DNA of 41,679 bases, from the IMG/VR virus record IMGVR_UViG_3300037086_000245, positions 1 through 41,679 of that record. One strand, 5' to 3'. Under the pieces are notes generated by a model, which made no database searches, was not told the origin of the DNA, and was given only the letters and a program-made list of their open reading frames with translations. The translations under genes were made by a program, and so were the position numbers. This document shows, one piece after another, positions 1,298 through 38,853 of the stretch (position 1 is the first letter of the stretch; each line of letters opens with the position of its first letter). Source of the stretch: a virus.

Positions 1298-2742
1298 TGA
1301 GTACCACCAAGTCTCTGTCGATCGAGCAGCTCCAGCTCCTGCCGCAAGACGCCTTGGTCGAGTCGCTTCGAAGCCGGCCGGAGGACCAGTGGTTCGATCG
1401 GACCAGTGCGCGGACAAATGCGAAGCACATCGGAGACATCCTTGCGAGCCTCGCCAATGCCGAGGGGGGACTCCTCGTAATCGGGATAGCGGACGGACGG
1501 GTTGAGGGCGTCGCCGCGACGCGATCCTTGCTGAACGAATGGAAACAGGCTGCCGTCGATTTCACGGTGCCGCCAGTGCGTCATCGCTTCCGGCTGGTGC
1601 CTTGCATGAACGACGCTGGGGCACCGGATCAGCTCGCACTGATCGAGGTCGAGCCCAGCGAACATGTGCACGAGACGGTCCGTGGCGACACGATCCTTCG
1701 GATCGGCGACGAGAATCGCCGGCTCGGGCCAGTCCAGGCGATGGAGCTCCGATTCGACAAGGGCGAGTCGATCTACGACGGCACTGCCGTCAAGGGGGCT
1801 CGCGAGGCTGACCTGGAACCCGACCTGATGGATAAGTACGTGGCAGGCATCCGTGGCGTGCATCGGCCGAACATCGTGCTTCAGTCGCGCGGCCTCCTCG
1901 TTGGTCGCGACGGTGCGCTCGCGCCCACAGTGGCGGGCCTACTCGTGCTCGGGCGCGATCCACAACAAACGTTCCCGGAGGCGTATGTGCGCCTGATTCG
2001 ATACCGAGGATCGTCCCGAGAGACCGGGGTACGCGCCAACGTGATCCAAGACGTGGTATGCGGTGGTCCGATCACGGCCCAGATCGATGCCGCGCGACGC
2101 CGTCTGCGGCGGTGGATACCGGCCACGATCCGTCTCGGCGAGGCCGGCCGATTTGCCCGGGCGACGCTCATTCCGGAGTTTGCCTGGCTCGAGGCGATCG
2201 TAAACGCTGTCGTCCACCGCTCATACAGCATGGCAGGGGATCACACGAGGGTGGAGCTCTTCGATGACCGCCTCGAAGTCGAGAGCCCAGGCCGGTTGCC
2301 GGGACTGGTGCGCATCGAGAACCTTCGTTCGACGCGATTCGCCCGGAACCCTCGGATCGCCAGGGCGGTAGCCGACCTGGGTTACGGACGGGAACTTGGC
2401 GAGGGCGTGAATCGGATGTTCGAGGAGATGCAGCGGGCTGGCCTACCGGATCCGATCTATACGCAGGGATCGGCTTCCGTGCGGGTTACGTTTCTTGCTG
2501 ACACCCTATCCGGTCGCATCTTGGACGCCCTGCCCACGGGCCTAGAGCGGTTCGTGGAGTTTCTGAGTCGAACGGGCCGGGTCACCACTACCCAGGCCGT
2601 CGGGCTCATGCGGCTGTCGAGGCCGACGGCTCTGAACCACCTACATCACCTCGCGAGCCTCGGCCTCATCGAGCATGTTGGTACGTCGCTGAAGGATCCT
2701 CGCGGTTACTGGCGACTGCACCGGGGCGACGGTCTGCGGTGA
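1297..2742 (+). CDS. AlbA_2/Schlafen-like ATP-binding transcriptional regulator
   Basis: This 481-residue protein resembles the 'ATP-binding protein, RecG-like' family. The N-terminal third carries an AlbA_2 (Schlafen-type) domain: a FDRTSARTNAKHIGDILASL region, then GGLLVIGIADG. A GHKL-type ATPase domain follows, with an N-box EAIVNAVVHRSYS, a VELFDDRLEVESPGRLPG strand and an ARAVADLGYGRELGEGVNR loop. The C-terminus is a winged helix (TTTQAVGLMRLSRPTALNHL). GTG 1297 is chosen because a -10 box lies 7 bp upstream; the open frame extends further back but would cross the promoter. Relatives occur as stand-alone regulators and in mobile or defence loci; no enzymatic role is proven. Base composition is less extreme than in the virion genes, in keeping with cargo DNA. 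Confidence 0.82.
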   Translation: MSTTKSLSIEQLQLLPQDALVESLRSRPEDQWFDRTSARTNAKHIGDILASLANAEGGLLVIGIADGRVEGVAATRSLLNEWKQAAVDFTVPPVRHRFRLVPCMNDAGAPDQLALIEVEPSEHVHETVRGDTILRIGDENRRLGPVQAMELRFDKGESIYDGTAVKGAREADLEPDLMDKYVAGIRGVHRPNIVLQSRGLLVGRDGALAPTVAGLLVLGRDPQQTFPEAYVRLIRYRGSSRETGVRANVIQDVVCGGPITAQIDAARRRLRRWIPATIRLGEAGRFARATLIPEFAWLEAIVNAVVHRSYSMAGDHTRVELFDDRLEVESPGRLPGLVRIENLRSTRFARNPRIARAVADLGYGRELGEGVNRMFEEMQRAGLPDPIYTQGSASVRVTFLADTLSGRILDALPTGLERFVEFLSRTGRVTTTQAVGLMRLSRPTALNHLHHLASLGLIEHVGTSLKDPRGYWRLHRGDGLR

Positions 2743-2748
2743 CCTACT

Positions 2749-2796
2749 AGGATGGTGGCAACACTAAAACTTTTATAGCTGCCCTCTCGCCATCCT
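2749..2796. repeat. 7-bp inverted repeat between the regulator and toxin genes
   Basis: AGGATGG at 2749-2755 is mirrored by CCATCCT at 2790-2796 around an AT-rich 34-base loop. It starts 6 bp after the stop of the AlbA-type gene. A TACAAT box directly follows at 2798-2803. It could be a weak terminator or an operator; no T-run supports a terminator. Confidence 0.3.
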
Positions 2797-2894
2797 GTAC
2801 AATCACCGGGACAACCGTCAAAGCTCGGCACGTGGACGACGCGATTGCGTGTCGCTATGGCCCAGAAGGTACTAGACGCCTGAGATAGCGCAGG

Positions 2895-2903
2895 TGCTAT
2901 ATT
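2895..2903 (+). promoter_or_regulatory. extended -10 promoter of the toxin-antitoxin pair
   Basis: TGCTATATT is an extended -10 element (TG at 2895-2896, TATATT at 2898-2903). A partial -35, TAGACG, lies at 2873-2878. Transcription would begin near 2910, about 13 bases before the GTG at 2923, which argues against the earlier TTG at 2902 as start codon. Confidence 0.5.
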
Positions 2904-2922
2904 GAACCCGCTTGGTGGCCGC

Positions 2923-5984: not shown

Positions 5985-6010
5985 GGGCCCTGGGTTCGTG
6001 CCCAGGGCCC
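5985..6010 (-). terminator. strong intrinsic terminator, 10-bp stem
   Basis: GGGCCCTGGG (5985-5994) pairs perfectly with CCCAGGGCCC (6001-6010) around a 6-base loop. Read on the minus strand it lies 25 bases after the stop of the 6035-6400 gene and is followed by TTTC. It also sits 36 bases past the HNH gene and may stop transcription from both sides. Confidence 0.75.
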
Positions 6011-6034
6011 GAGTCTCGGCTGGTTGCGGTCGGG

Positions 6035-6400
6035 CTATCCGGCGTCACCCTGGGAGCCCGCCTCCGGCACGGCAGCCTTGCGCCCGCGCGGGGCCCGCGT
6101 CCGGATCGGCTCGAGCTTCGGCGTCCTGGACTCCTTGGTCTTCCGGCCGCCGACGGCCTTGGGAGTGGCGACCGCCACCGGCTCCGGCTCGGTCGACAGC
6201 GCCTCGCTCGCCGTCCCGCCCTCGTCGGCCCTGCGAGCCAGCGCAGCCTTCCGGAGCTCCTTCGTGTACTGGTTCCAGTGGGGCTTGCACATCCGGCCCA
6301 GACCGTCCTTCTGGCTGGGCTGGGCCGGGAAGTCGCCGACCGGCGCCTCGTGCGCCTCGATCCCGAACTTCGCCGATCCGATGCACTTCCGCATGTCCGC
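6035..6400 (-). CDS. small cysteine-containing phage protein, own terminator
   Basis: This 121-residue protein of unknown function lies on the strand opposite the structural genes. The first half looks folded and conserved: MRKCIGSAKFGIEAHEAP, then DGLGRMCKPHWNQYTKEL, giving Cys and His residues that could bind zinc. The second half is a basic, Pro/Ala-rich tail (KTKESRTPKLEPIRTRAPR). GTG 6400 is chosen because AAAGGA lies 8 bases upstream; ATG 6394 is also possible. Its inverted orientation and private terminator are typical of a moron, a gene that can be expressed in the lysogen. Confidence 0.6.
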   Translation of the reverse strand, partial: ADMRKCIGSAKFGIEAHEAPVGDFPAQPSQKDGLGRMCKPHWNQYTKELRKAALARRADEGGTASEALSTEPEPVAVATPKAVGGRKTKESRTPKLEPIRTRAPRGRKAAVPEAGSQGDAG

Positions 6401-6504
6401 CACGTCCGTCGTCCTTTCGCTTGCCGTCGCCGATCTGGCGTTCGGCAGCCCATCCCTCACTCGGTTGGCGAGACGATGCAAGGCCGAAGATCGGGGGCCG
6501 CCTG

Positions 6505-7917
6505 ATGACGACGAAGACGCGCGTCGCCGTCACCCCGACCGCGGCCTGGCGCAACCGGATCACCGGTGCAGGTGAGGAGGCACCTGACCAGCTCCTTGCC
6601 AACCCGGCGAACTGGCGGATCCATCCGAAGGCGCAGCAGGACGCCCTCGCTGGGGCTCTCGACCAGGTCGGCTGGGTCCAACAGGTCCTCGTGAACCGGC
6701 GCTCGGGCTTCGTGGTCGACGGCCACGCCCGGGTGGCGCTCGCTCTCAGCCGCGGCGAGACGACCGTGCCGGTCCTGTACGTCGATCTCGAGCCCGAGGA
6801 GGAGGCGCTCGTCCTCGCCACCCTCGACCCGATCAGCGCGATGGCCGGCCGGGACGACGAGAAGCTCCGGACCCTCCTCTCCGAGATCACGGTGGACGAT
6901 GCCGGGCTCCTCGCCCTCCTCGGCGACCTGGCGGGCAACGATCCGAAGGCCGGCCTGACCGATCCGGACGAGGTGCCCGAGACGCCCGAGGAGCCCTACG
7001 TCAAGCCGGGCGAGCTGTACGTGCTCGGCGACCACCGCATCCTCTGCGGCGACGCAACGAACCCAGGGGACGTGGGCAGGCTGCTCGACGGGGCGGCACC
7101 GACGCTTCTCGCGACGGACCCGCCTTACGGGGTGCAGCTCGACCAGACCTGGCGCGACGGCGTCTACAACGGCCCGCGCAAGCGGGTGCGCGGCTGGGGC
7201 GTCGTCGCGGGCGCCGCCAAGCCGTACATGATGCGCGACGCCCCAGATGGCCAGCCCGACGGCAACGACGCCACACGGGCCACCCGTGGCGCCCACGGGC
7301 GAACCGCGGGCCATCGCCACACCACCATCAGCGGCGACGTCCGGGCGGACTGGTCCGAGGCATTCGCTCTCGTGCCCTCCCTCCAGGTTGGCTACGTCTG
7401 GTACGCGAGCGCCCACACCCAGGAGGTTCTATCCGGCCTCCTCGCCATCGGCTTCGAGCTGGCCCAGCAGATCATCTGGGACAAGGGCCTCTTCTCGATT
7501 GGGCGCTCCTGGTACCACTGGGCGCACGAGCCCTGCTTCGTGGTCCGCAAGCCGGGCGTGCCCAACCTCTTCATCGGCGAGCACGACCAGGCCACCATCT
7601 GGCGCGCCCCCTCACCCAAGCGGATCGGCTCGGGCTCCAAGGAGCACAAGGAGGACCACCCGACCCAGAAGCCCGTGGTCCTGTCCGAGATCCCCATCCG
7701 CAACCACCTGCGCCCGGGCGAGGCCGTGTACGAGCCCTTCAGCGGCTCAGGCACGACCCTCATGGCGGCCGAGACCCTGGGCCGGCGCTGCTACGCGATG
7801 GAGATCGACCCCAAGTACGTCCAGGTCGCCATCGAGCGGTGGCAGAACTTCACGGGCCGGCAGGCGGAGCGCCTGCCTGGCCCCAGCCCGCTGTCTGTGG
7901 CGAGTCAGATCAAATGA
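6505..7917 (+). CDS. ParB-like/DNA methyltransferase fusion (N6-A or N4-C)
   Basis: This is a 470-residue protein. Residues about 25-110 form a ParB/sulfiredoxin-like domain with the FVVDGHARVALAL motif. Residues about 180-455 form a DNA amino-methyltransferase of the beta type: motif IV DPPYGV at 205-210 comes before motif I FSGSGTT at 412-418. The substrate would be adenine N6 or cytosine N4. No restriction nuclease lies next to it, so it probably acts as an orphan modifier protecting phage DNA or marking it for packaging or regulation. ATG 6505 follows a 104-bp gap that must hold the divergent promoters of this gene and the 6035-6400 gene. A segment around residues 220-275 is rich in Gly, Arg and Thr and probably forms a loop between the motifs. 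Confidence 0.88.
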   Translation: MTTKTRVAVTPTAAWRNRITGAGEEAPDQLLANPANWRIHPKAQQDALAGALDQVGWVQQVLVNRRSGFVVDGHARVALALSRGETTVPVLYVDLEPEEEALVLATLDPISAMAGRDDEKLRTLLSEITVDDAGLLALLGDLAGNDPKAGLTDPDEVPETPEEPYVKPGELYVLGDHRILCGDATNPGDVGRLLDGAAPTLLATDPPYGVQLDQTWRDGVYNGPRKRVRGWGVVAGAAKPYMMRDAPDGQPDGNDATRATRGAHGRTAGHRHTTISGDVRADWSEAFALVPSLQVGYVWYASAHTQEVLSGLLAIGFELAQQIIWDKGLFSIGRSWYHWAHEPCFVVRKPGVPNLFIGEHDQATIWRAPSPKRIGSGSKEHKEDHPTQKPVVLSEIPIRNHLRPGEAVYEPFSGSGTTLMAAETLGRRCYAMEIDPKYVQVAIERWQNFTGRQAERLPGPSPLSVASQIK

Positions 7918-28627: not shown

Positions 28628-31600
28628 TCAATCCAAGGGAGAAGGCGGCTCATCGTTCGTTACGACGGCGAAGGCACCAGGCCACCCGCCGTGCTGGTCG
28701 ATGACCTCGTCGATCTTGCCCATGAGGCGGATCGTCTCCGAGATCGCGACCACGATCTTCTGGTAGTGGGCGATGTCCTCAGCAGACAGCGTGCGGCCCT
28801 TGCGATCCTTGAGCCACTTCTCACAGACCCGGTATGAGCCGATCTCGAAGTTCCACACCGCCGCGGGAACGCCCCGAAAGCCGGTGGTGCCAGGTCCGGC
28901 CGGCTGGCCATTCTTCGACGTAGAGGCGTCGAGCCATACGGTGTCGTTTGACCAGCCGACGAGCCCGACTTGAGGGTACTTCGCGCCCACATATAGGTTG
29001 CCGACAGAACCGAGTTTCGGCGACTCCATGAGGTGGAGGGACATGAGTTCGCAACCGAGTCGGGCCATCGAGTCCATCAGGTCGCGATTGGCGATTGGCG
29101 GTATTCGAGGGAAGTCAGCTCGCAGCTGCGACTGGTACCGCCGTCGGTACGTTGGCGAGTGCAGGATCGCGTAGATGTACCCGAGCTTCGACATCGCTCG
29201 CTGGCGAACCTCACTCTCGTCATCGAGTCCCTCGGAGACGGAATCTCGAGAGTTCTCGGCAATGGCGGCGCCGCGATCGAACATCCCGTCTGTCAACACT
29301 AGGCTCGGTGCCATGTAGGTTATGCAGGCTGAGTCGGGGAAGAAGCGACCGAGGATCGGGTCGTAGGAGACGAAGACGTGATCCCAAGGTCTTCCGGCGC
29401 CCGTATTTCTCGGAAAGACTAGGAGAGGGTTCTTGCCGATTGCCAGGTGGCGCCGCAACTCGGGCCGAGACCAGTCCACCATCCACTCGGTGAGGTAGAC
29501 ACTTCGCTCGTCGAAAGGGCGATAGAGGCAGAGCGCGACCCGGTCTCGCCAATGGTCGTCCCGTCGGAGCTTTCTCCTCGCTTCTGGTAGCTTCCAGCCT
29601 CGCGAGTCACCTGCCGGATACTTAGGCGAGCTCTTCCCCTCGAACAACCGCTGCCGAAGCGCGTCGTCTGAGACACTCGTGTCACGAAGAAGCTCGATTC
29701 GCTCGAGGATTGGCTCGGGTGCGTAGTCGAGAACGAGTTCGTCGCGAGCGGTGATCACGCCACTCGAGTAGGTGGGCATCAACTCGGACAACTTCGGCCA
29801 TTCCGGATAGGCACCCAAATCGTCAACTTCGGAGCGGAAGAAGTAGAACGGAGTAGCGGGCCGAAGGTGGCCCCAATGGGTGGTCTCGACCGAGTTCGAG
29901 CCGAGCCAGGTGTACTTCGTGTCTGTACTACCCCAGAGGTCAGTCCGGAGGACCTGCGAATCCACGGCATCACATGCGCCGACGAAGATCGCAACTCCTT
30001 GACGGATCTCGAACACGTTCTTGTCCTCCGTTCCGTCCGGCGCGCGCTCCTTCTTCAGGGCGTTTCCGTGCAGGTCGAGGACATACATGCGCGGGAACGT
30101 GCGGATGAGGCTCTGCCGCATGCCGCGGAATGTTGGGTTGTCGAGATAGCCGTGGTTGGTGATGAAGCCCAGGATGCCCACGTGGGCGCGCTCGATCGTC
30201 ACCTGTGCCATTCGGATGAACTTGACGTAGTCATCCTGCAACCAGATCTTCCGTTCGTTGAGCGCCACGCCGTCGACGAACTTGTAAGCGTCCACCAGGC
30301 GTTGGGCATCCTCCGTCATGTTTGACGAGATGCCTGAATACGGAGGATTGCCAAGCACGACGGTAAACCGCTGCTTTCGTTTGACCTCATTGACCTCCTG
30401 TGCCTCATGAGCCAGGGCAGGAACGGCGAAGAGGAAACGATCCGAGAAGTCTTCGGCCGGTTCGAGTGAGTTGGTGAGGAAGATCCGAGCACGAACCTCG
30501 CTCTCGAAGCGGTAGCCAGTCTCGTACAGCTTGAGCCCGATCTTGAGATGCGCGATGGCGTAAGGCGCCATTAGCAGTTCGAAGCCATGCAGGCGTGGAA
30601 GGACGTGCTTGGGTACATAGTCGTTCCAGAGCGACTCGCGCTCTTTCTCGCCGTGGCCCAGCGCCTTCCACTTGGTGACCACCGTCTTGTAGATGAGGTC
30701 GATGACCTCGACGAGGAAGGTGCCGGTCCCGGTGGCGGGATCGAGGATCTGCACGAAGGGCTGCTCGCGGGAGACACCCTCGGGGATCCTCAGGCCTTCC
30801 CGCCTCGTCGCCATCTCGCCCCAGGTGCTGGTGTCGGCGAGACCGTCTTCGAGTCCGAACTGGGTGCGCAGCAGCCCGTCGACCGACCGCACGATGTAGG
30901 AGACGATCGGGCGCGGCGTGTAGAAGACGCCCCGCTGCATCCTCTGACGTTCGTCGTACTCCTTGAGAAAAAGCTCGTAGAAGGGGATAACCGGGTCATC
31001 CTCAGGGTTCCGGTCGCCAAAGTCCCGGAGCACCGCCTCAATGTTGCGGTTGTTGAGGAGATCGACGACCTCCGCGACACCGAGTTCGTCGAAGTCGATG
31101 CCCGGGCCACCGACCCTTGCACCCCGACCCCCGACGTGGAGGAACGTCTGAAGCAGATCCCGAAGCATGGGATTCGTACGCATATGCCCGACGAGGTCGC
31201 CGGCTGTCTCCGACTGCGGGTCGGCGATGCGGGCCGAGAGCAGCCCGTAGGCGATGGTTTGCGCGTACATGTCCGCGAAACCGCGAGCGTCGAGGTCGTG
31301 GACCAGCGAGACCTGGACCGCCTTCATCAACTGTGTGAGGGGACCCCGTTCCGTCTCAATTGCCAACGCGCTGACGATCCGATCCCGAGTAGCGCGGGCG
31401 AGCTGCGCGAGTCGGATTGCCATCTCACGTGAGGTATTGATGACCTCGCGATGGCCCAAGGTGAATGCGCTCCCCCACCGCGACCGCCAAGCGGCAACGT
31501 TGGCCTCGTCGTCGGGCCAGACGAGGTTCCGAGTGAGGCTCTCGGCTACGTCGTCGAGGTGCAGCGGCGTATCGAGGTTGTCCCACCCAAGAACCTGGAG

Positions 31601-32038
31601 CGTCGGAAGGCTCTGCTTTTCTGGATCCTCGGCGAAATGCGCGAACGCGATCTGGCGCGTGTCGCCTTCGCCATAGTTGGAGATGAAGAGCAGGTCCGAG
31701 ATGGCCCAGGCGGCGTGATCGGGGCTGTTCGCTGAGGCGCGCTTCCTGAGGGCGACGCCGCTGAGGATGCGGCGGAGGGCGACCACCGGCAGACGCTTCG
31801 GCTCGAATTTGACGAAGAAGACGCCCCACGGTTGATTTACCGACAAGGGGCGGAGGCGCTTGATCTCCTCGATCTTCGCCGCGTTGTGGGCGTCGATGCC
31901 GAGGTCCTCCGCTGAGTAGTCGAAGACCGAGTCCTCGAAATCGTCCGTACGGATCGGCCAGTCGAGCTCCTCCCGCAGGTAGCGGACAAGCTGCGGGAAG
32001 GTGTGAATGGCGGCGAGCTCCTCGCGGGCGCCGCTCAT
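28628..32038 (-). CDS. type ISP-like DNA adenine methyltransferase with specificity domain
   Basis: This 1136-residue protein carries methyltransferase motif I DPATGTGTF at residues 433-441 and motif IV NPPYSG from 564, the gamma-type N6-adenine order. Upstream is a helical N-terminal domain (GVFFVKFEPKRLPVVALRRI; YDERQRMQRGVFYTPRPIVS just before motif I). Downstream lies a long target-recognition region ending like LlaBIII-type ISP enzymes (IDEVIDQHGG). No helicase or nuclease motif lies inside; those sit in the upstream gene, whose stop overlaps this start (ATGA). In single-chain type ISP enzymes both parts are one polypeptide, so this looks like a split version. It probably marks host DNA as self. 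Confidence 0.85.
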   Translation of the reverse strand: MSGAREELAAIHTFPQLVRYLREELDWPIRTDDFEDSVFDYSAEDLGIDAHNAAKIEEIKRLRPLSVNQPWGVFFVKFEPKRLPVVALRRILSGVALRKRASANSPDHAAWAISDLLFISNYGEGDTRQIAFAHFAEDPEKQSLPTLQVLGWDNLDTPLHLDDVAESLTRNLVWPDDEANVAAWRSRWGSAFTLGHREVINTSREMAIRLAQLARATRDRIVSALAIETERGPLTQLMKAVQVSLVHDLDARGFADMYAQTIAYGLLSARIADPQSETAGDLVGHMRTNPMLRDLLQTFLHVGGRGARVGGPGIDFDELGVAEVVDLLNNRNIEAVLRDFGDRNPEDDPVIPFYELFLKEYDERQRMQRGVFYTPRPIVSYIVRSVDGLLRTQFGLEDGLADTSTWGEMATRREGLRIPEGVSREQPFVQILDPATGTGTFLVEVIDLIYKTVVTKWKALGHGEKERESLWNDYVPKHVLPRLHGFELLMAPYAIAHLKIGLKLYETGYRFESEVRARIFLTNSLEPAEDFSDRFLFAVPALAHEAQEVNEVKRKQRFTVVLGNPPYSGISSNMTEDAQRLVDAYKFVDGVALNERKIWLQDDYVKFIRMAQVTIERAHVGILGFITNHGYLDNPTFRGMRQSLIRTFPRMYVLDLHGNALKKERAPDGTEDKNVFEIRQGVAIFVGACDAVDSQVLRTDLWGSTDTKYTWLGSNSVETTHWGHLRPATPFYFFRSEVDDLGAYPEWPKLSELMPTYSSGVITARDELVLDYAPEPILERIELLRDTSVSDDALRQRLFEGKSSPKYPAGDSRGWKLPEARRKLRRDDHWRDRVALCLYRPFDERSVYLTEWMVDWSRPELRRHLAIGKNPLLVFPRNTGAGRPWDHVFVSYDPILGRFFPDSACITYMAPSLVLTDGMFDRGAAIAENSRDSVSEGLDDESEVRQRAMSKLGYIYAILHSPTYRRRYQSQLRADFPRIPPIANRDLMDSMARLGCELMSLHLMESPKLGSVGNLYVGAKYPQVGLVGWSNDTVWLDASTSKNGQPAGPGTTGFRGVPAAVWNFEIGSYRVCEKWLKDRKGRTLSAEDIAHYQKIVVAISETIRLMGKIDEVIDQHGGWPGAFAVVTNDEPPSPLD

Positions 32039-35000
32039 TCGCCGTTGACCTCCATCCAGGCGACGAGCCTCGGCTCGACGCCGAGCGGCGCGTCGATGCG
32101 CTTGAGGTAGCTGTTCTTGATGTGCTTGCGGACCTTTGTGCGCAGGTCGAGAAGAGTCGACTCGTCCATCTGACAGACGCGCGGCGTCGACGGCGTCGAA
32201 CGGATGCTCTCAGCGATCTGGCCGGCATCCTCGAGGATGGCTTCGGTCGCGAGGTCGACGTAGTACCAGCGGGCCGTACCGGCGGCTTCGGTGAACTCCT
32301 CGGACTGCACGTCAAGAGCGGGCAGGCGATAGCAGAAGAAGACACCCCGGATGCCATTCCCCTCTCGCCGGCGACCGCTGAACACCGAACCGGGCAGCCC
32401 CGCCAGACGCGCCTCGAGTTCCGGGTCACCTTGGATGAGGGCCTGGTATTCGAGGTGGAGGTCCTCGATGGGAGTCTTCGTCCCCTCGTAGTTGTGGGTG
32501 AACTCGATCAGGGCCTGGTAGTCATCGGCAGGCGTCAGGAGCTTCTTCCCCTCGATCCCGAGCGTGGTGGAGATCATCAGGATCTTGCCGGTCACCGTGC
32601 GATAGAGCGACAAGATGAGATTGAGTTCACCAGGCGGTAGGAAGTTCCAGAAGATCACCTTCCCGCGGCCCTCCTTCTGGTCGGGGTGGTCGGCGAGCAG
32701 TCGCGCCTCCACGTCGGGGTTCATACGTCGATCGACGCGACCGATCCGCTGCATCAGGCGCACCGGGTTCCAATGGATGTCGTAGTTGATCAGGCGTGTC
32801 GCGTCCTGGAGGTTGAGTCCCTCGGAGAGCACGTCGGTCGAGATGAGCACCCGGATCTCGTCCCGGCCCCGCTTCTTCAACTCCGGTGAGCTCGAGCGGT
32901 TGTAGTACGGCGAGAACCGCCGGATCACGTCCGCCCGGTCGACCTTTGCGCCCGAGTCGAGCTCAGCGAGCCCGTCAGTCCCCGCAGCCTTCAACTCGCG
33001 TGCCACGTATCGGGCGGTGTCGGCGAACTCGCTGAAGACAAGGACCTTCTTGCCGGCCAGATCCTTGGAGGTCAGGAGCGTCTTGAGCCTGTTCAGCTTG
33101 TCGTCGTGCTTGGGCTCGAACTTCTGGGTTTCGGCGAGGAACCGAACGATTTGATCGAGGTCCAGGTACGTCTCGTTGACGATGGCGTCAACGTTGTATT
33201 CATCGCGGCTCAGGACGCGGACATCAGGGAGGAGCTCATCGGGCTCGATGTCCTCTTCGTCCGATGCGTCGTCCTCGTCCCCGCCCCAGAGGGACAGCTG
33301 GCGTACAGCGGCCGCGCGAAGGACGCTCTCGTTCATGCGGCGCCAGCGGTCGAGTCGACTTCGATCGCCGTCCGAGTTGGCATGGACCTCGACGAACGCC
33401 AGCAGCTTCCGTAGGAGGCGGTTCGTCGAGATCTCGAACGCGAACACCGAGCTCTCGAACCGTTTGAGGAACTGGGTCCGAATGAGGCCCACCACTTGCT
33501 TCTGCCGCCCCTCCTCGAGGGGATCGATCGAGGCGTCCGGGCCCTTGTAGTAGGCCAGCGGGTAGTAGAAGGGCAACGCGAACAGAGGGCTCTTCTTGGA
33601 GAAGGCCGCCTCGATCATGTCGAGGAGCTGGCCGTACGTCTTGCGCACCGAGTACTCCGCCACACGGGGCGACCCTCGTTCCGGGAAGATGGCGGCGGCG
33701 CCCTTTTCGCGTTTCTGGCTCTCGACGGCGTAGGCGCGACTGCGCTGGACAACCAGGCTCCTGAAGACATCGCTCTCCGAGAGACGCTCAGTCGCTTCGA
33801 CGGTGCTGTCGCTCAGGTCGCCGTCCTCGAGCCCGAGCTCGACCCGCAGGTCCTTCTCCATCCGGCTGAAGAGTGCCGTGAGGTTGTTGACCCCGAGGGT
33901 CCGGGCGAAGTACGCGTCGTCGCGACGCGAGAACAGCTCGACCATGTGCCGGAAGTCGGTCAGCCGGTTGTTGATCGGCGTCGCCGTGAGCATGTACACC
34001 GACTTCGGGTGGGTTGCCGGGTCGAGGAGATCGAAGAGCTCGTAGTAGCGGGAGTCCTTCGACCCGCTATCGCCACCACGCCGCTGCCCAGGGTTGCGGA
34101 AGTGGTGGGCCTCGTCGATCACGACGGCATCGGCCGTCGCGGCGATCCGCCGGAACCGCTCGGGGAAGTCGTTTCCGCGGCTCAGGTCCGTGTGGCTGAA
34201 CACCGCGAGGTTGCTGAAATCAACGCTGCCACCCACGCCGCCGACGTGCGCTAGGTACTCGCGCAGGTGCGGATCCCAGACCGCCTCCTTGGCGCCCTTC
34301 GGGGCAAACAGGACGACGCGCTTCCGCTCGTGGAGGATCAGGCGCTCGATGAGCATCAGCCCGACGAAGGTCTTGCCCAGCCCCACGCCGTCACAGAGGA
34401 ACGCCCCACCGAACTGACGGGCGATGCCTGTCAGGGCCCAATACGCCTCCTTCTGGTACCGATCGAGGCGCGGGAACATCTTCGACTGGCTCTCGTCCCA
34501 CTCGGTGTCGGTGACCTGGTGGCCGCGGAAGAGCTCGTCGAGCGCCTTGGCATACACCTCGAATGGTTGGTACTCGCGGGCGTGTCGCTCAATGACGCCA
34601 AGGACGGTGTCGCTCACGTCGACAGCTTCTCTCCAATGGGCGTCGAACCAATCCTGGAGCTGCTGCACGTCCCCCGGGCTCTGAACCTGGATGTTCAGTT
34701 CGACGTTCTGGGTCAGGCCGGGGCGGGTGAAGTTGCTTGAGCCGACGAGCGCCTTGGCGCCCACGACCTCGAGCTTGGCGTGGGTGATGTACGTCTTCGC
34801 GTGGAACTTGGCCTTGTTGTAGACCTTGCACTCGATCTGACCCGACCGCAGAGCCGCCACAATCCCGGGCACTCCGTTCAGGAACGGATTGGCGTCCTTC
34901 TCCGCCTCGAGATCCTTGTCGAGGGCGCGTCGAGCGGTGCCGCGCACCGCGTCGAGCAGGACCTTCCTGGTGCTGGCCGTGACGTCCGAGCCCATGAGGA

Positions 35001-35187
35001 TGCGGATCTTGCTCAGACCCTGCCACTTGCCGTCCAGGGCAAGGAGGGCGCCGACCTCGAAGTAGCCTGCCGCGATGTCGAAGCTGCTCGCGAGCTCGCA
35101 CCACTCTTGGAGGTAGCGGAGGCCGGTCCATCCAGGGTCCGAGTTGTCAACGATGAACAGGTCGCCGCCCTTACGCTCGCTCGTCAT
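32035..35187 (-). CDS. PLD-like nuclease domain fused to SNF2-type helicase
   Basis: This 1050-residue protein begins with a phospholipase D-type domain (residues about 1-190) with the HxK motif KFHAKTYI (H129, K131) and GSSNF at 149-153. A SNF2/DEAD-like translocase follows: Walker A GVGLGKT ending at K272-T273, Walker B DEAH at 358-361, motif III MLTATPINN, and a second RecA lobe with STDVLSEGLNLQDA and QRIGRVDRR. Only one HKD half-site is visible, so dimerisation may be needed for nuclease activity. ATG 35187 overlaps the stop of the upstream stub (ATGA) and is preferred over an extension to 35295. With the downstream methyltransferase it probably forms a restriction system that tracks along unmodified DNA. 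Confidence 0.85.
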   Translation of the reverse strand: MTSERKGGDLFIVDNSDPGWTGLRYLQEWCELASSFDIAAGYFEVGALLALDGKWQGLSKIRILMGSDVTASTRKVLLDAVRGTARRALDKDLEAEKDANPFLNGVPGIVAALRSGQIECKVYNKAKFHAKTYITHAKLEVVGAKALVGSSNFTRPGLTQNVELNIQVQSPGDVQQLQDWFDAHWREAVDVSDTVLGVIERHAREYQPFEVYAKALDELFRGHQVTDTEWDESQSKMFPRLDRYQKEAYWALTGIARQFGGAFLCDGVGLGKTFVGLMLIERLILHERKRVVLFAPKGAKEAVWDPHLREYLAHVGGVGGSVDFSNLAVFSHTDLSRGNDFPERFRRIAATADAVVIDEAHHFRNPGQRRGGDSGSKDSRYYELFDLLDPATHPKSVYMLTATPINNRLTDFRHMVELFSRRDDAYFARTLGVNNLTALFSRMEKDLRVELGLEDGDLSDSTVEATERLSESDVFRSLVVQRSRAYAVESQKREKGAAAIFPERGSPRVAEYSVRKTYGQLLDMIEAAFSKKSPLFALPFYYPLAYYKGPDASIDPLEEGRQKQVVGLIRTQFLKRFESSVFAFEISTNRLLRKLLAFVEVHANSDGDRSRLDRWRRMNESVLRAAAVRQLSLWGGDEDDASDEEDIEPDELLPDVRVLSRDEYNVDAIVNETYLDLDQIVRFLAETQKFEPKHDDKLNRLKTLLTSKDLAGKKVLVFSEFADTARYVARELKAAGTDGLAELDSGAKVDRADVIRRFSPYYNRSSSPELKKRGRDEIRVLISTDVLSEGLNLQDATRLINYDIHWNPVRLMQRIGRVDRRMNPDVEARLLADHPDQKEGRGKVIFWNFLPPGELNLILSLYRTVTGKILMISTTLGIEGKKLLTPADDYQALIEFTHNYEGTKTPIEDLHLEYQALIQGDPELEARLAGLPGSVFSGRRREGNGIRGVFFCYRLPALDVQSEEFTEAAGTARWYYVDLATEAILEDAGQIAESIRSTPSTPRVCQMDESTLLDLRTKVRKHIKNSYLKRIDAPLGVEPRLVAWMEVNGE

Positions 35188-35546
35188 TGAGGACCCCCCA
35201 GGCCCCGGCCGATCCGCCGCGATTGTCCGGCTCCGGCGGCGCTGGGTCGCTCGGCGTCTGCCCGGGCTCTGATCGGTACGTGGCTGTCTTCCCACGCGGC
35301 GCTGACCTGCTCGCGGACCCGGTTGATGAAGTCGTCGTCGGTCATCCGCTCGCCGACCCAGTCGCCGGGCAGGCTGAGCTGGGCACCGCCCTTGACCTTG
35401 GCCTTGGCGATCGGGATGAAGTACGTGCTCCGCCGGCGGCCCTCGGCGATCTCGCTCGTGATCCCGTCTTCGTCGAACCGGAAATGGCGCGTCGGTTCGG
35501 CAAATGGCGAGTTCAGGATCGGGTTCTCGATCGAGACCGGCGGCAC
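35184..35546 (-). CDS. stub resembling the N-terminus of BPTD_3080-family restriction enzymes
   Basis: This is a 120-residue frame. Residues 1-75 (NPILNSPFAEPTRHFRFDED, GITSEIAEGRRRSTYFIPIA, then FINRVREQV) strongly recall the start of the long helicase-type restriction proteins called BPTD_3080 family, which run to many hundreds of residues. After residue 75 the sequence turns into Arg/Ala-rich, unstructured text and stops. The GTG start has a ribosome site (AAAGGA), and the stop overlaps the helicase ATG, so it is still coupled to that gene. It is either a degraded remnant or a reduced module kept for its N-terminal function. Confidence 0.62.
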   Translation of the reverse strand: MPPVSIENPILNSPFAEPTRHFRFDEDGITSEIAEGRRRSTYFIPIAKAKVKGGAQLSLPGDWVGERMTDDDFINRVREQVSAAWEDSHVPIRARADAERPSAAGAGQSRRIGRGLGGPQ

Positions 35547-35695
35547 GGGGTCCTTTCAGAGCAGTGGCGACTTGGCGCTCCGTGCAGGATACGCGGCGGG
35601 CGCGTCAGCTTGAGTGGCACTGGGGTGGCCCAAGGAGCGTCACGGATAAGTACCTACGGACGGAGCGGACCTGCCGGTGGTCCCGTTGCCGTCAC

Positions 35696-35725
35696 TTGAC
35701 GCCGCGGCCCCCAAGGCCCCATCAT
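35696..35725 (+). promoter_or_regulatory. candidate promoter of the structured RNA
   Basis: TTGACG at 35696-35701 and CATCAT at 35720-35725 are separated by 18 bp. Initiation would fall near 35732, just before the first stem of the folded RNA. The -35 matches the consensus in five of six positions, the -10 in four of six. Confidence 0.45.
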
Positions 35726-35731
35726 CCGAAG

Positions 35732-35812
35732 TGGAGACCCGCCCATGGCGAACGCCCTCCCTAAAGGGGGCCCGCTGGCGCAAGCCGGCTAGCTACGGCG
35801 GGTTCCTCTTTT
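35732..35812 (+). ncRNA. candidate structured RNA next to DUF3800 (three-way junction)
   Basis: About 80 nt fold into three stems. P1 pairs 35736-35743 with 35797-35804 (8 bp). P2 pairs GCCCTC (35754-35759) with GGGGGC (35766-35771). P3 pairs GCTGGC (35774-35779) with GCCGGC (35784-35789) and is capped by the GNRA loop GCAA. P1, P2 and P3 each contain one G-U pair that would be an A/C mismatch on the other strand, so the RNA strand is plus. A TTCCTCTTTT tail follows P1 as in an intrinsic terminator, and a promoter-like pair precedes it. The RNA would end exactly at the stop codon of the convergent DUF3800 gene. Structured RNA motifs associated with DUF3800 genes are known from comparative genomics; whether this is one of them needs a covariance search. 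Confidence 0.55.
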
Positions 35813-36525
35813 CATGGCGGCGACGTCATCGGGTTCTTGCGGGTGTACCGCGTCACGCGGCCGAGATCCCAGATGCTCCCGAGTATCGGCTGTGCGAGCT
35901 GCGTCCACTTCATGTTGCCTCGCTCGAAGGCCTGAAACACCGCCCACGCGATGTAGTCCGCTGCCTGGAGGCCGCGACTGGAAGCGTGAGTCCTCAGCTG
36001 AGCGTCCACGGAGTGGCCGCTCCACTTCGAGAAGCCCCCGAGCACCACGCGATGGCGATCTCCAATCGTGGTCGCCATCTGCTGTAGCTCCTTGGCCGTG
36101 TCGAAGTCCTTCCGGCTGATCACGATCGTCGTGCGCGCGTAGGAATGGAGTTGGTCGCCCAGGAGATACCCCAGCATCTCGTTGTAGAAGCGCGTTGGAT
36201 CCGTTCTCCATGTCTGAGCGGGATCCAGCATTGTCTTGTCCATTACGATCGCGCTTGCCACCACGTCGAGACCAGCAAGCGTGGTCAGGACGCGCGACTT
36301 CAAGCCTGGGCCGTCGGTGACGGCATGAAGAATCCGGGGCTTCCCGCCTGTCGGGGCGGCGGCCGCCACCTCGCGCGCCAACCTCTGTGGGTCTGCTGTT
36401 CGAATGGCGGCGATGACGAGGTACTTGCTCGTCTTGCCCACCGCTAAGAGGTCGTCACCCTTCTTGTTGAAGACCTCAGGGCGGCCGCTTTCATCGACGA
36501 AGATGTGCTGGGCACCCGGCTTCAT
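35812..36525 (-). CDS. DUF3800 domain protein
   Basis: This 237-residue protein shows the family's landmarks: the N-terminal HIFVDESGRP, with Asp and Glu in an RNase H-like position, a central KYLVIAAIRTADPQRLAREV, and near the C-terminus GLQAADYIAWAVFQAFERGN, where the Asp is the conserved partner. The pattern suggests a metal-dependent, RNase H-like fold; biochemical function is not established. It has a ribosome site (GGAGA, 6 bases upstream of ATG 36525), and the start overlaps the stop of the upstream gene (ATGA). DUF3800 genes are frequent in defence islands and on mobile elements, and this one abuts the structured RNA at 35732-35812. Confidence 0.82.
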   Translation of the reverse strand: MKPGAQHIFVDESGRPEVFNKKGDDLLAVGKTSKYLVIAAIRTADPQRLAREVAAAAPTGGKPRILHAVTDGPGLKSRVLTTLAGLDVVASAIVMDKTMLDPAQTWRTDPTRFYNEMLGYLLGDQLHSYARTTIVISRKDFDTAKELQQMATTIGDRHRVVLGGFSKWSGHSVDAQLRTHASSRGLQAADYIAWAVFQAFERGNMKWTQLAQPILGSIWDLGRVTRYTRKNPMTSPP

Positions 36526-37058
36526 CCGTTCTCCCCGCGTGGGCTGTCCGCCAGCCAGAAGCCAGAGATGGCTGGGAGCCTGAGCCGGAGGAAAGGAAGA
36601 TCGACGTCACTGCCAACCTTTACGTCTGATAGATGGACGAAACGCGGTTCCGGCCCTTCCGCGAGGCCAGCGCCAAGTGGCTCCGGGTCTTGCGCTGTGA
36701 TGGCGGTCGCGACCACCTCGTCCAACATCTCGTAAGCCGGATCTTCCACTCGATGCGTGATGCTCGCGGCGAGCGCCTCGCGGAACGCAGCCGGGGAGAT
36801 AAGCGTGCCCGTGACAACGATCCCGTTGGAAAGGATGACCAGTCGGGCTCTCCAGCCGAGAGCTGCAAGCTCGACGAGACGCTTCAGGAGAGGGTCGCCG
36901 GAAAGTCCTGTCGGGAGCAGCCAACTCATGCCCGGTTCCGGCGACTCGTTTCCTGGCGGGCCCCCGATCCTGTCCTCGGCCGGAGGGGTGCCGGTCATCT
37001 TGTCGGGCCGTTCCATCCGGCCGTCCAACTCCGACCCAAGTTCGTCGTCGTCACCCAT
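36522..37058 (-). CDS. small protein with GvpU-like core
   Basis: This 178-residue protein starts at ATG 37058 with a good ribosome site (GGGAGG, 8 bases upstream) and is coupled to the DUF3800 gene. The first 45 residues are acidic and Pro-rich. Residues about 55-105 (LLKRLVELAALGWRARLVIL, SNGIVVTGTLISPAAFREAL) resemble the beta core of the accessory proteins named GvpU; no other gas vesicle gene is near, so that name may not describe the role. The C-terminus is beta-rich (PRFVHLSDVKVGSDVDLPFL). It is likely a partner of the DUF3800 protein; function unknown. Confidence 0.5.
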   Translation of the reverse strand: MGDDDELGSELDGRMERPDKMTGTPPAEDRIGGPPGNESPEPGMSWLLPTGLSGDPLLKRLVELAALGWRARLVILSNGIVVTGTLISPAAFREALAASITHRVEDPAYEMLDEVVATAITAQDPEPLGAGLAEGPEPRFVHLSDVKVGSDVDLPFLRLRLPAISGFWLADSPRGENG

Positions 37059-37181: not shown

Positions 37182-38624
37182 TCAGGTCGACCTCCGGCGA
37201 CGCCGTAGCGTCTTGGCCACCTTCTCCGGCAGCCACGGCTCCGCACTGGCCAGGTCCGCCTTGATCGCCCGCTCGGTTGTTGCCCGTTCCTCGATCTCCT
37301 GCTCGATGCGTGCGAGCTCCTCGTCGATCTCGGGGTCATGCGCTGGTTCGCTGAGCCGCCGTCGCCTCTCCCGCTGGGAGAAGCGGTACCGCTCACGGTC
37401 GGTGCAGAAGCTTGATCGTCGCGCGTCCAGAGTCAGGAACGGCTGCCCGCACTCTCGGCAGAGGGCGGCACCGCGCTGTCCCTCGGTCACCCGGCGCAGA
37501 GCCTCGACCAACTGAAGGTAGACAGGCGCGAGTAGCGAACTCCACCAGCGACGCTCGTGAACGACGAGCGGACCGGGGAAGCGGTCAGCAAGACTCTCGC
37601 CCTCCCGCGTCAGGTCGCGCTCAAGCCCCGGTCGGCCGATCTCCACCTGGTACTCCGCCGCTCGCCGGACGTAGGGGGTCAGCAGGCGACGCTCAAGCTC
37701 CACCAGGCCCCACCAATCGGCGCTGAGCCGCCCTACTGGCGATCGTCCCGACGGCGGGCCCAGCTCGATGTCGTAGTCCGCCCAGTCCTCTTGATACCAG
37801 CTTGCGAGCGGGACCCACAGGATCGGGATGCCTACCGCGGCGATGCGTTGCCAGGCCGCGTGAGCGGTCGGCCACCACTGCTCGGTGAACTGCTTCCGCG
37901 TGACGCCCGCGAGGTTGTACTCGGTGAGTGAGCCGCCTTTGACCACGTCCTCGAACCGAGCGTAGTGCTGCATCAGTGGCGAGATGCGCGACTCGAAGTT
38001 GCTGGTGCCTCCGAGCCACAGCACCCCACCGGTCGGATCTCGCAGCACGGGCTGTGCCCAGGCCGGGTTCCAGCCCTCGTGCGGCTGCCAGCCAGGACGC
38101 GGCGGATCGGCCCGCTCACGCTCGTCGCTCAACCGAGCCAGAGCCATGAGATGCCAACGCACGTTCGCCTGTTGCTGGAGAACATCGACCTGCGCATCGC
38201 GGAATCCAGGGTCTTCTCGCACGTGGTCCGACACCTCGAAGGCATCGGCCGGGAAGAAGTGCGCGAGGTCGAGCACGCCGTGCTCCTGGTACCACGGCCG
38301 GGCCACCTTCCGGTCCGACAGGTCAACCCGCGCGAAGTCCTCCGCGAGCAGTAGTCCGCTTGCCACGCGCTCAAACGGGTCGTATCCCGCGTCCGCGAGG
38401 TCCCCAACGATGTCCCCGCGTGCCCAGCCGAGATCGTTGGCGCGGTAGAGGACCTGGACGCTCGCGGGCAGGCGAAGCCGGCCTTCACCAGCGAAGCGCG
38501 GCCGGAGACTCACCTCGATCGAGTCTGGCGAGGTGTCATCAACAGATTCGGGATTGCAGTGGACATTTAGGGGCCTTAGACTGTCGGCATACGTCAGCAG
38601 CAGTTGCCGTGGACGCGATGACAT
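37182..38624 (-). CDS. large protein with C-terminal CGNR-like zinc cluster
   Basis: This 480-residue protein (from ATG 38624; a GTG near 38513 is another possible start) has no obvious family. Residues about 35-330 are mixed alpha/beta with many Trp (AHAAWQRIAAVGIPILWVPL, SADWWGLVELERRLLTPYVR). Near the C-terminus is a zinc cluster, CRECGQPFL...SSFCTDRERYRFSQRERRRR, which recalls the CGNR finger of ABATE-type proteins. A long charged helix follows (DPEIDEELARIEQEIEERAT). It is divergent from the HTH gene at 38659 and lies upstream of the GvpU-like/DUF3800 pair, with a 123-bp gap that holds a separate promoter. A nucleic-acid-binding role is plausible. Confidence 0.55.
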   Translation of the reverse strand: MSSRPRQLLLTYADSLRPLNVHCNPESVDDTSPDSIEVSLRPRFAGEGRLRLPASVQVLYRANDLGWARGDIVGDLADAGYDPFERVASGLLLAEDFARVDLSDRKVARPWYQEHGVLDLAHFFPADAFEVSDHVREDPGFRDAQVDVLQQQANVRWHLMALARLSDERERADPPRPGWQPHEGWNPAWAQPVLRDPTGGVLWLGGTSNFESRISPLMQHYARFEDVVKGGSLTEYNLAGVTRKQFTEQWWPTAHAAWQRIAAVGIPILWVPLASWYQEDWADYDIELGPPSGRSPVGRLSADWWGLVELERRLLTPYVRRAAEYQVEIGRPGLERDLTREGESLADRFPGPLVVHERRWWSSLLAPVYLQLVEALRRVTEGQRGAALCRECGQPFLTLDARRSSFCTDRERYRFSQRERRRRLSEPAHDPEIDEELARIEQEIEERATTERAIKADLASAEPWLPEKVAKTLRRRRRST

Positions 38625-38658
38625 GAGGATGCCACAAGTGTCGACGCAAGGGAAGCCC

Positions 38659-38853
38659 ATGGACGCAGTGGACGGGGGCAGCGGACGGCTGCTCCGCATC
38701 GAGCAGATCGCCGAGCGATTGTCGGTGAGTCGGTCGATGGCATGGAAGATCATCGACAAGGGGCAGCTGCGCTCGGTGCGCATCGGCCGAGCGGTGCGCG
38801 TCCGGCCCCAGGACCTCGACGACTACGTCGCCGATCCTGCCCGCGAGCGGTGA
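38659..38853 (+). CDS. excisionase-like helix-turn-helix protein
   Basis: This 64-residue protein (ATG 38659, ribosome site AAGGGAAG close upstream; ATG 38623 would add 12 residues) has the MerR/excisionase fold: LLRIEQIAERLSVSRSMAWK, then IIDKGQLRSVRIGRAVRVRP and a QDLDDYVA end. Such proteins act as excisionases or as small regulators. The stop overlaps the primase start (GTGA), so the two are coupled, and it may control the replication operon. Confidence 0.8.
   Translation: MDAVDGGSGRLLRIEQIAERLSVSRSMAWKIIDKGQLRSVRIGRAVRVRPQDLDDYVADPARER

What the first reader, a model, noticed from the sequence alone, without database searches (positions are those of the whole stretch)
35696..36525. DUF3800 gene with an adjacent small structured RNA
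A three-way-junction fold with a GNRA loop, one strand-specific G-U pair in each of its three stems, a promoter-like pair and a terminator-like U-tail fill the space right up to the DUF3800 stop codon. RNA motifs near DUF3800 genes have been reported by comparative genomics without known function. A protein of RNase H-like build with its own small RNA could be a ribonucleoprotein system, either a defence device or an RNA-guided or RNA-controlled nuclease. The convergent layout also allows antisense control.
Basis: partly seen in the sequence, partly recalled or inferred. Interest (0 to 1): 0.8.

Follow-up and report, generated by a model that had tools for sequence, protein, structure and literature searches.

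The report
Small RNA paired with DUF3800 nuclease
A phage cargo gene for a predicted RNase HII-like nuclease (DUF3800) has a small three-armed RNA gene pointing at its end; the same RNA-plus-nuclease pair recurs across bacteria, plasmids and phages, sometimes inside restriction-modification operons, so it is a real two-part unit, most likely a nuclease controlled by its own RNA.

Summary
Folding energy is not the evidence: many stretches of this GC-rich window fold as well. Comparison is. A model of the window RNA found two further RNAs in the same place, convergent with a DUF3800 stop codon. A structure descriptor then found 18 such RNAs beside 123 distinct DUF3800 genes, none on the opposite strand and none in 4,920 shuffles. 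Three helices covary (35 compensatory cells, shuffled mean 8.3), and G-U versus A-C counts fix the strand. The window RNA is a divergent relative of Rfam DUF3800-IX (RF02968: full-length match, 26.6 bits, gathering cut-off 36.8). The RNA type tracks one DUF3800 clade that includes the window protein. That protein is predicted to fold like RNase HII and keeps its DE-x-G motif. Four related pairs sit in type I restriction loci in the hsdS-hsdR gap; the window pair lies beside a different restriction operon. Three phage records carry the RNA without any DUF3800 gene. Best reading: an RNA-controlled nuclease linked to restriction, resembling type III toxin-antitoxin systems and PrrC in logic, with the phage RNAs as possible decoys. 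The pair is well supported; the mechanism is inferred (about 0.45). RNA guiding and simple antisense control fit less well.

The parts
35696..35725 (+). Promoter-like pair TTGACG-18 nt-CATCAT; predicted start about 35732
   Evidence: only site in 35540-35900, 9 of 12 matches; promoter-like sites before many, not all, homologous RNAs
35732..35812 (+). Small RNA gene, DUF3800-IX-like three-way junction (RF02968 match at 35737-35807)
35733..35749 (+). P1, 5' strand (CA internal loop at 35744-35745)
   Evidence: homologous P1 covaries
35750..35753 (+). Junction J12 GAAC (GA-N-A in homologues, GAAc in the RF02968 consensus)
35754..35771 (+). P2 hairpin
35774..35789 (+). P3 hairpin with GCAA tetraloop
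35790..35791 (+). Junction J31 UA, conserved
35792..35806 (+). P1, 3' strand
35807..35812 (+). U-rich 3' end reaching the DUF3800 stop codon
   Evidence: direct reading; classic terminator scan negative
35812..36525 (-). DUF3800 protein, 237 aa, predicted RNase HII-like fold; D11, E12, D96, D190 as candidate active-site acids
32035..35190 (-). Neighbouring restriction system, PLD-helicase subunit (context)
28628..32038 (-). Neighbouring restriction system, Type ISP-like methyltransferase subunit (context)

Best explanation
A two-part unit: a predicted RNase HII-like nuclease (DUF3800) and, convergent with it, a short structured RNA made from its own promoter. Shown by sequence: the RNA is a real conserved three-way junction, its strand is fixed, it is specific to one DUF3800 clade, and it lies just past the end of the gene. 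Inferred: the RNA binds the DUF3800 protein directly and keeps the nuclease off, like an RNA antitoxin; infection or inhibition of the linked restriction system lifts the block, and the nuclease then cuts an RNA or RNA-DNA target and stops phage growth. Phages that carry the RNA alone would use it as a decoy that keeps the nuclease silent. In the window, the pair is cargo of a phage, next to a two-gene restriction system. Confidence that the RNA is real and belongs with DUF3800: about 0.93; that this mechanism is right: about 0.45, the figure given.
For: Existence and class. Strand: 21 G-U/U-G against 1 A-C cells on an alignment made without structure, 12 of the 21 in one column. Clade specificity: all 20 labelled rows fall within one 32-row clade (98/91); 6 changes against 18.7 in shuffles, 0 of 500 as low. 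Nuclease fold: AF2 pLDDT 80.7, pTM 0.84, best PDB matches RNase HII/HIII, E 4e-5 to 3e-4. Restriction link: hsdS-DUF3800-RNA-hsdR order in 4 of 17 loci checked; the window and L026 place DUF3800 beside the same PLD-helicase plus Type ISP methyltransferase. Control rather than guiding: RNA core more conserved than the protein and without an evident variable segment. Decoy idea: RNA without DUF3800 in phage records G1230/G1231 (60.5 bits), G1232 (54.2 bits) and G1233 (24.8 bits). Precedents: PrrC embedded in a type IC locus (PMC3874165, PMC12707154); phage pseudo-ToxI RNA (PMC3475682).
Against: No test of binding, toxicity, cleavage or phage protection exists here. The layout differs from type III toxin-antitoxin loci (convergent, not a repeat array upstream of the toxin). 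The records with the RNA alone may be incomplete, and their hosts may supply a DUF3800. Thirteen of 17 loci checked show no hsd slot. The window RNA is divergent: R2, trained without it, gives only a mis-registered 13-bit hit, and RF02968 scores below its cut-off.
Confidence: 0.45

Rival explanations
1. The RNA is a positive cofactor: DUF3800 is active only as a ribonucleoprotein with this fixed RNA, which positions or activates the nuclease.
For: Strict pairing of RNA type with protein clade; RNase H fold with Argonaute/PIWI as weaker matches; DUF3800 as an accessory in some CRISPR loci (PMC10910872, PMC12669027).
Against: Phage copies of the RNA alone are harder to explain, unless they serve a host DUF3800.
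Confidence: 0.3
2. Convergent transcription or antisense pairing controls DUF3800, and hsdR where it lies downstream; the protein never binds the RNA.
For: Convergent layout in every member; in some members P1 overlaps the 3' coding end (L096, L112).
Against: Structure and junction bases are conserved with compensatory change, which complementarity does not need; the RNA tracks the protein clade; phages carry it without DUF3800.
Confidence: 0.12
3. RNA-guided nuclease: part of the RNA base-pairs with targets.
For: RNase H-like fold.
Against: No evident variable segment: L184 and L185 RNA cores identical over 62 bases with 69% identical proteins; most of the core sits in helices or conserved junctions.
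Confidence: 0.05
4. Only a two-way terminator between convergent genes; no RNA function.
For: A-rich 5' and U-rich 3' ends around a GC-rich stem in many members.
Against: Three covarying helices with conserved junctions, fixed strand, occurrence without DUF3800.
Confidence: 0.05

Closest known systems
DUF3800-IX RNA (Rfam RF02968)
   Same: P1, GAA-type J12, P2, P3, UA J31 and U-rich end, beside a DUF3800 gene; full-length match with only two marks for non-standard pairing.
   Different: 26.6 bits against a gathering score of 36.8. The window has an internal loop in P1 that the consensus lacks, and a GCAA tetraloop on P3.
Type III toxin-antitoxin systems (ToxIN)
   Same: Nuclease with its own small structured RNA; phage RNA mimics known for ToxIN (PMC3475682).
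   Different: Other nuclease fold, convergent layout, no repeat array.
PrrC in EcoprrI
   Same: Predicted nuclease gene embedded in a type I restriction locus, in the hsdS-hsdR gap, in 4 relatives.
   Different: PrrC is not reported with a small RNA and is unrelated to DUF3800 (own knowledge); the window locus itself is not an hsd operon.
RNase HII
   Same: Predicted fold and DE-x-G motif.
   Different: Small, clade-linked RNA; accessory, mobile distribution.

Membership tests
RF02968 DUF3800-IX | Score at or above the curated gathering cut-off | tested here: not met
   26.6 bits against 36.8; no hit at gathering over the whole window
RF02968 DUF3800-IX | All helices and junctions of the model present | tested here: met
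   model positions 1-67 matched, two marks for non-standard pairing
RF02968 DUF3800-IX | Location next to a DUF3800 gene | tested here: met
   RNA 3' end at 35812, gene 35812-36525
RF02968 DUF3800-IX | Covariation among homologues | tested here: met
   13 homologues without the window: 12 pairs with changes on both sides, 0 of 500 shuffles as high
Type III toxin-antitoxin | RNA antitoxin repeat array upstream of the toxin, co-transcribed | tested here: not met
   single RNA, convergent with the gene
Type III toxin-antitoxin | RNA binds and inhibits the nuclease | not testable with these tools
   needs expression and binding assays
PrrC-like restriction-linked nuclease | Gene embedded in a type I restriction locus in the hsdS-hsdR gap | tested here: inconclusive
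   met in L237, L243, L245, L246; the window lies beside a different restriction operon
RNase HII | RNase H-like fold with DE-x-G motif | tested here: met
RNase HII | Cleavage of RNA-DNA hybrids | not testable with these tools
   no assay

The most novel reading that the evidence does not exclude
DUF3800 and its RNA form a restriction-linked abortive infection module in which a structured RNA silences an RNase HII-like toxin, and phages carry copies of the RNA as decoys.
Probability: 0.3. Interest if true: 0.85.

Novelty: new variant of a known kind. Interest (0 to 1): 0.62.

Why it matters
DUF3800-associated RNAs have Rfam families (RF02968, RF02969), and to my knowledge no function is known. 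This case gives a shared architecture, a fixed strand, a protein clade that goes with it, a predicted nuclease fold, a restriction-operon position and phage records with the RNA alone. Together they turn the open question into a small set of direct tests.

Tried and rejected
Close relatives of the window DUF3800 by single-protein search: none in genome contigs, viral contigs, phages or plasmids. The 178-aa neighbour: no relatives in viral contigs. Exact pattern from the window RNA: no hits. R1 over 16 whole genomes and records: nothing. RF02968 over 149 genomes of one phylum: one hit below the cut-off. RNA sequence searches in named phages and plasmids: none. Folding-energy z-score as evidence: rejected, not exceptional in this window. 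R2 on the window: only a mis-registered weak hit, so the window's link rests on R1, RF02968, the descriptor, its position and the protein tree. The pair counts lean towards the structure because the descriptor selected them; one search is the cleaner test. Promoter strength is uneven: 18 RNAs average 7.5 of 12 matches against 4.8 in shuffles, and some show no clear site. The 2017 paper that described the DUF3800 RNA motifs is not in the library held, so what it says about layout could not be compared.

Full report
Setting. The window is a 41,679-base virus record with terminase, portal, major head and tape-measure genes. A cargo stretch holds a two-gene restriction system, PLD-helicase 32035-35190 and Type ISP-like methyltransferase 28628-32038, and DUF3800 at 35812-36525. 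L087, a near relative (79% DNA identity over the primase region), does not match the cargo region.

Observation. The plus strand of 35732-35812 folds as a three-way junction, preceded by the only promoter-like pair of the region. Its folding energy is not unusual here. Comparative evidence was therefore needed.

Homologues. A model of this one sequence (R1) found L110 and L099, each E about 0.0015-0.0017 over 748 kb, and both end at a DUF3800 stop codon in the convergent layout. Reading of neighbours and a full-sensitivity search added L091, L115, L113, L116, L117, L118 and L119. A descriptor (P1, GA-type J12, P2, P3, UA, P1) on the antisense strand at the 3' end of 123 distinct DUF3800 genes gave 18 hits at 18 or more, 0 on the sense strand and 0 in 4,920 shuffles; the window scores 22.5. 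In the whole window it is the only hit at 16 or more.

Structure and strand. On an alignment of 13 homologues made without structure and without the window, 98.6% of cells pair, 12 pairs change on both sides and 35 cells are compensatory (shuffled mean 8.3; 0 of 500 as high); sliding the partner destroys the signal.

Class. Given only the 81 bases, Rfam RF02968 (DUF3800-IX) matches the window at full length, 26.6 bits, E 3.2e-4; the gathering score is 36.8. In 451 bases it was not reported. L115 matches RF02968 at 30.9 bits. R2, trained without the window, finds many relatives strongly but the window only at 13 bits and out of register. The window RNA is thus a divergent relative, not a formal member.

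Protein. AF2 gives pLDDT 80.7 and pTM 0.84; the only PDB matches with E below 0.001 are RNase HII and HIII. The motif DESG matches the DEAG of RNase HII (own knowledge). D11, E12, G14 and D190 are invariant in two small alignments; position 96 is D or E. An earlier paper also reports an RNase H fold for DUF3800 (PMC10910872).

Pairing. In a 112-row DUF3800 tree all 20 rows labelled with this RNA fall within one clade of 32 (98/91), needing 6 changes against 18.7 in shuffles. Eighteen of the labels come from the descriptor; L117 and L118 were set by eye and later found by R2. Of the other 12 rows, L186, L188 and L104 are found by R2 and L111 and L112 by a looser descriptor; the rest look alike by eye only. 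The window and L096 are sisters, and L096 has the RNA overlapping the end of its gene. Other DUF3800 groups have different convergent structured stretches.

Neighbourhood. Of 17 loci checked, four place DUF3800 and the RNA in a type I restriction locus in the hsdS-hsdR gap: L237, L243, L245 and L246, some with further genes in the gap (AAA ATPase plus HNH, NYN). L026, like the window, joins DUF3800 to a PLD-helicase and Type ISP methyltransferase. L226 has it beside an integrase.

RNA without DUF3800. A pattern scan of viral contigs found the RNA in G1230/G1231 (one phage; R2 60.5 bits), G1232 (54.2 bits) and G1233 (24.8 bits), records in which no DUF3800 was found at E 1. L228 carries a portal gene nearby and L230 phage replication genes. 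These records may be fragments.

Mechanism. Shown: a conserved RNA gene, its strand, its place, its protein clade, a predicted nuclease fold. Inferred: direct binding, silencing, release on infection. The RNA has no evident variable part, which speaks against guiding. The restriction slot recalls PrrC and the phage RNAs recall pseudo-ToxI; these are likenesses in working, not membership.

Noticed in passing
window 28628-35190: Two-gene restriction system (PLD-helicase plus Type ISP-like methyltransferase) widespread in bacteria, helicase relatives up to 68% identical.
   Followed up: partly
window 35184-35546: 120-aa ORF between the RNA and the helicase, without Pfam match; weak relatives in L043 and L045.
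   Followed up: partly
window 36522-37058 and 37182-38783: Two minus-strand ORFs (178 and 533 aa) without Pfam match beside DUF3800.
   Followed up: partly
window ends against L087: L087 continues from window 41679 to window 36 with about 440 bases between, suggesting a permuted or circular genome.
   Followed up: partly
window 6841-6930, minus strand: Most unusual folding energy of the window, z -7.6, inside the methyltransferase ORF at 5998-7917.
   Followed up: no
window 2731-2910: Structured stretch, low z: both strands at 2731-2820, plus strand at 2821-2910; overlaps the end of the ORF at 1213-2742.
   Followed up: no
L228/L229, L230, L231: DUF3800-type RNA in phage records without a DUF3800 gene; P3 longer in L228 and L230.
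   Followed up: partly
L127, L129, L130, L132, L133; L123, L153, L155, L181; L152, L157, L179; L154, L162: Other DUF3800 groups have other conserved structured-looking stretches convergent with the gene.
   Followed up: no
L237: DUF3800 plus RNA followed by an AAA ATPase and an HNH gene within a type I restriction locus.
   Followed up: partly
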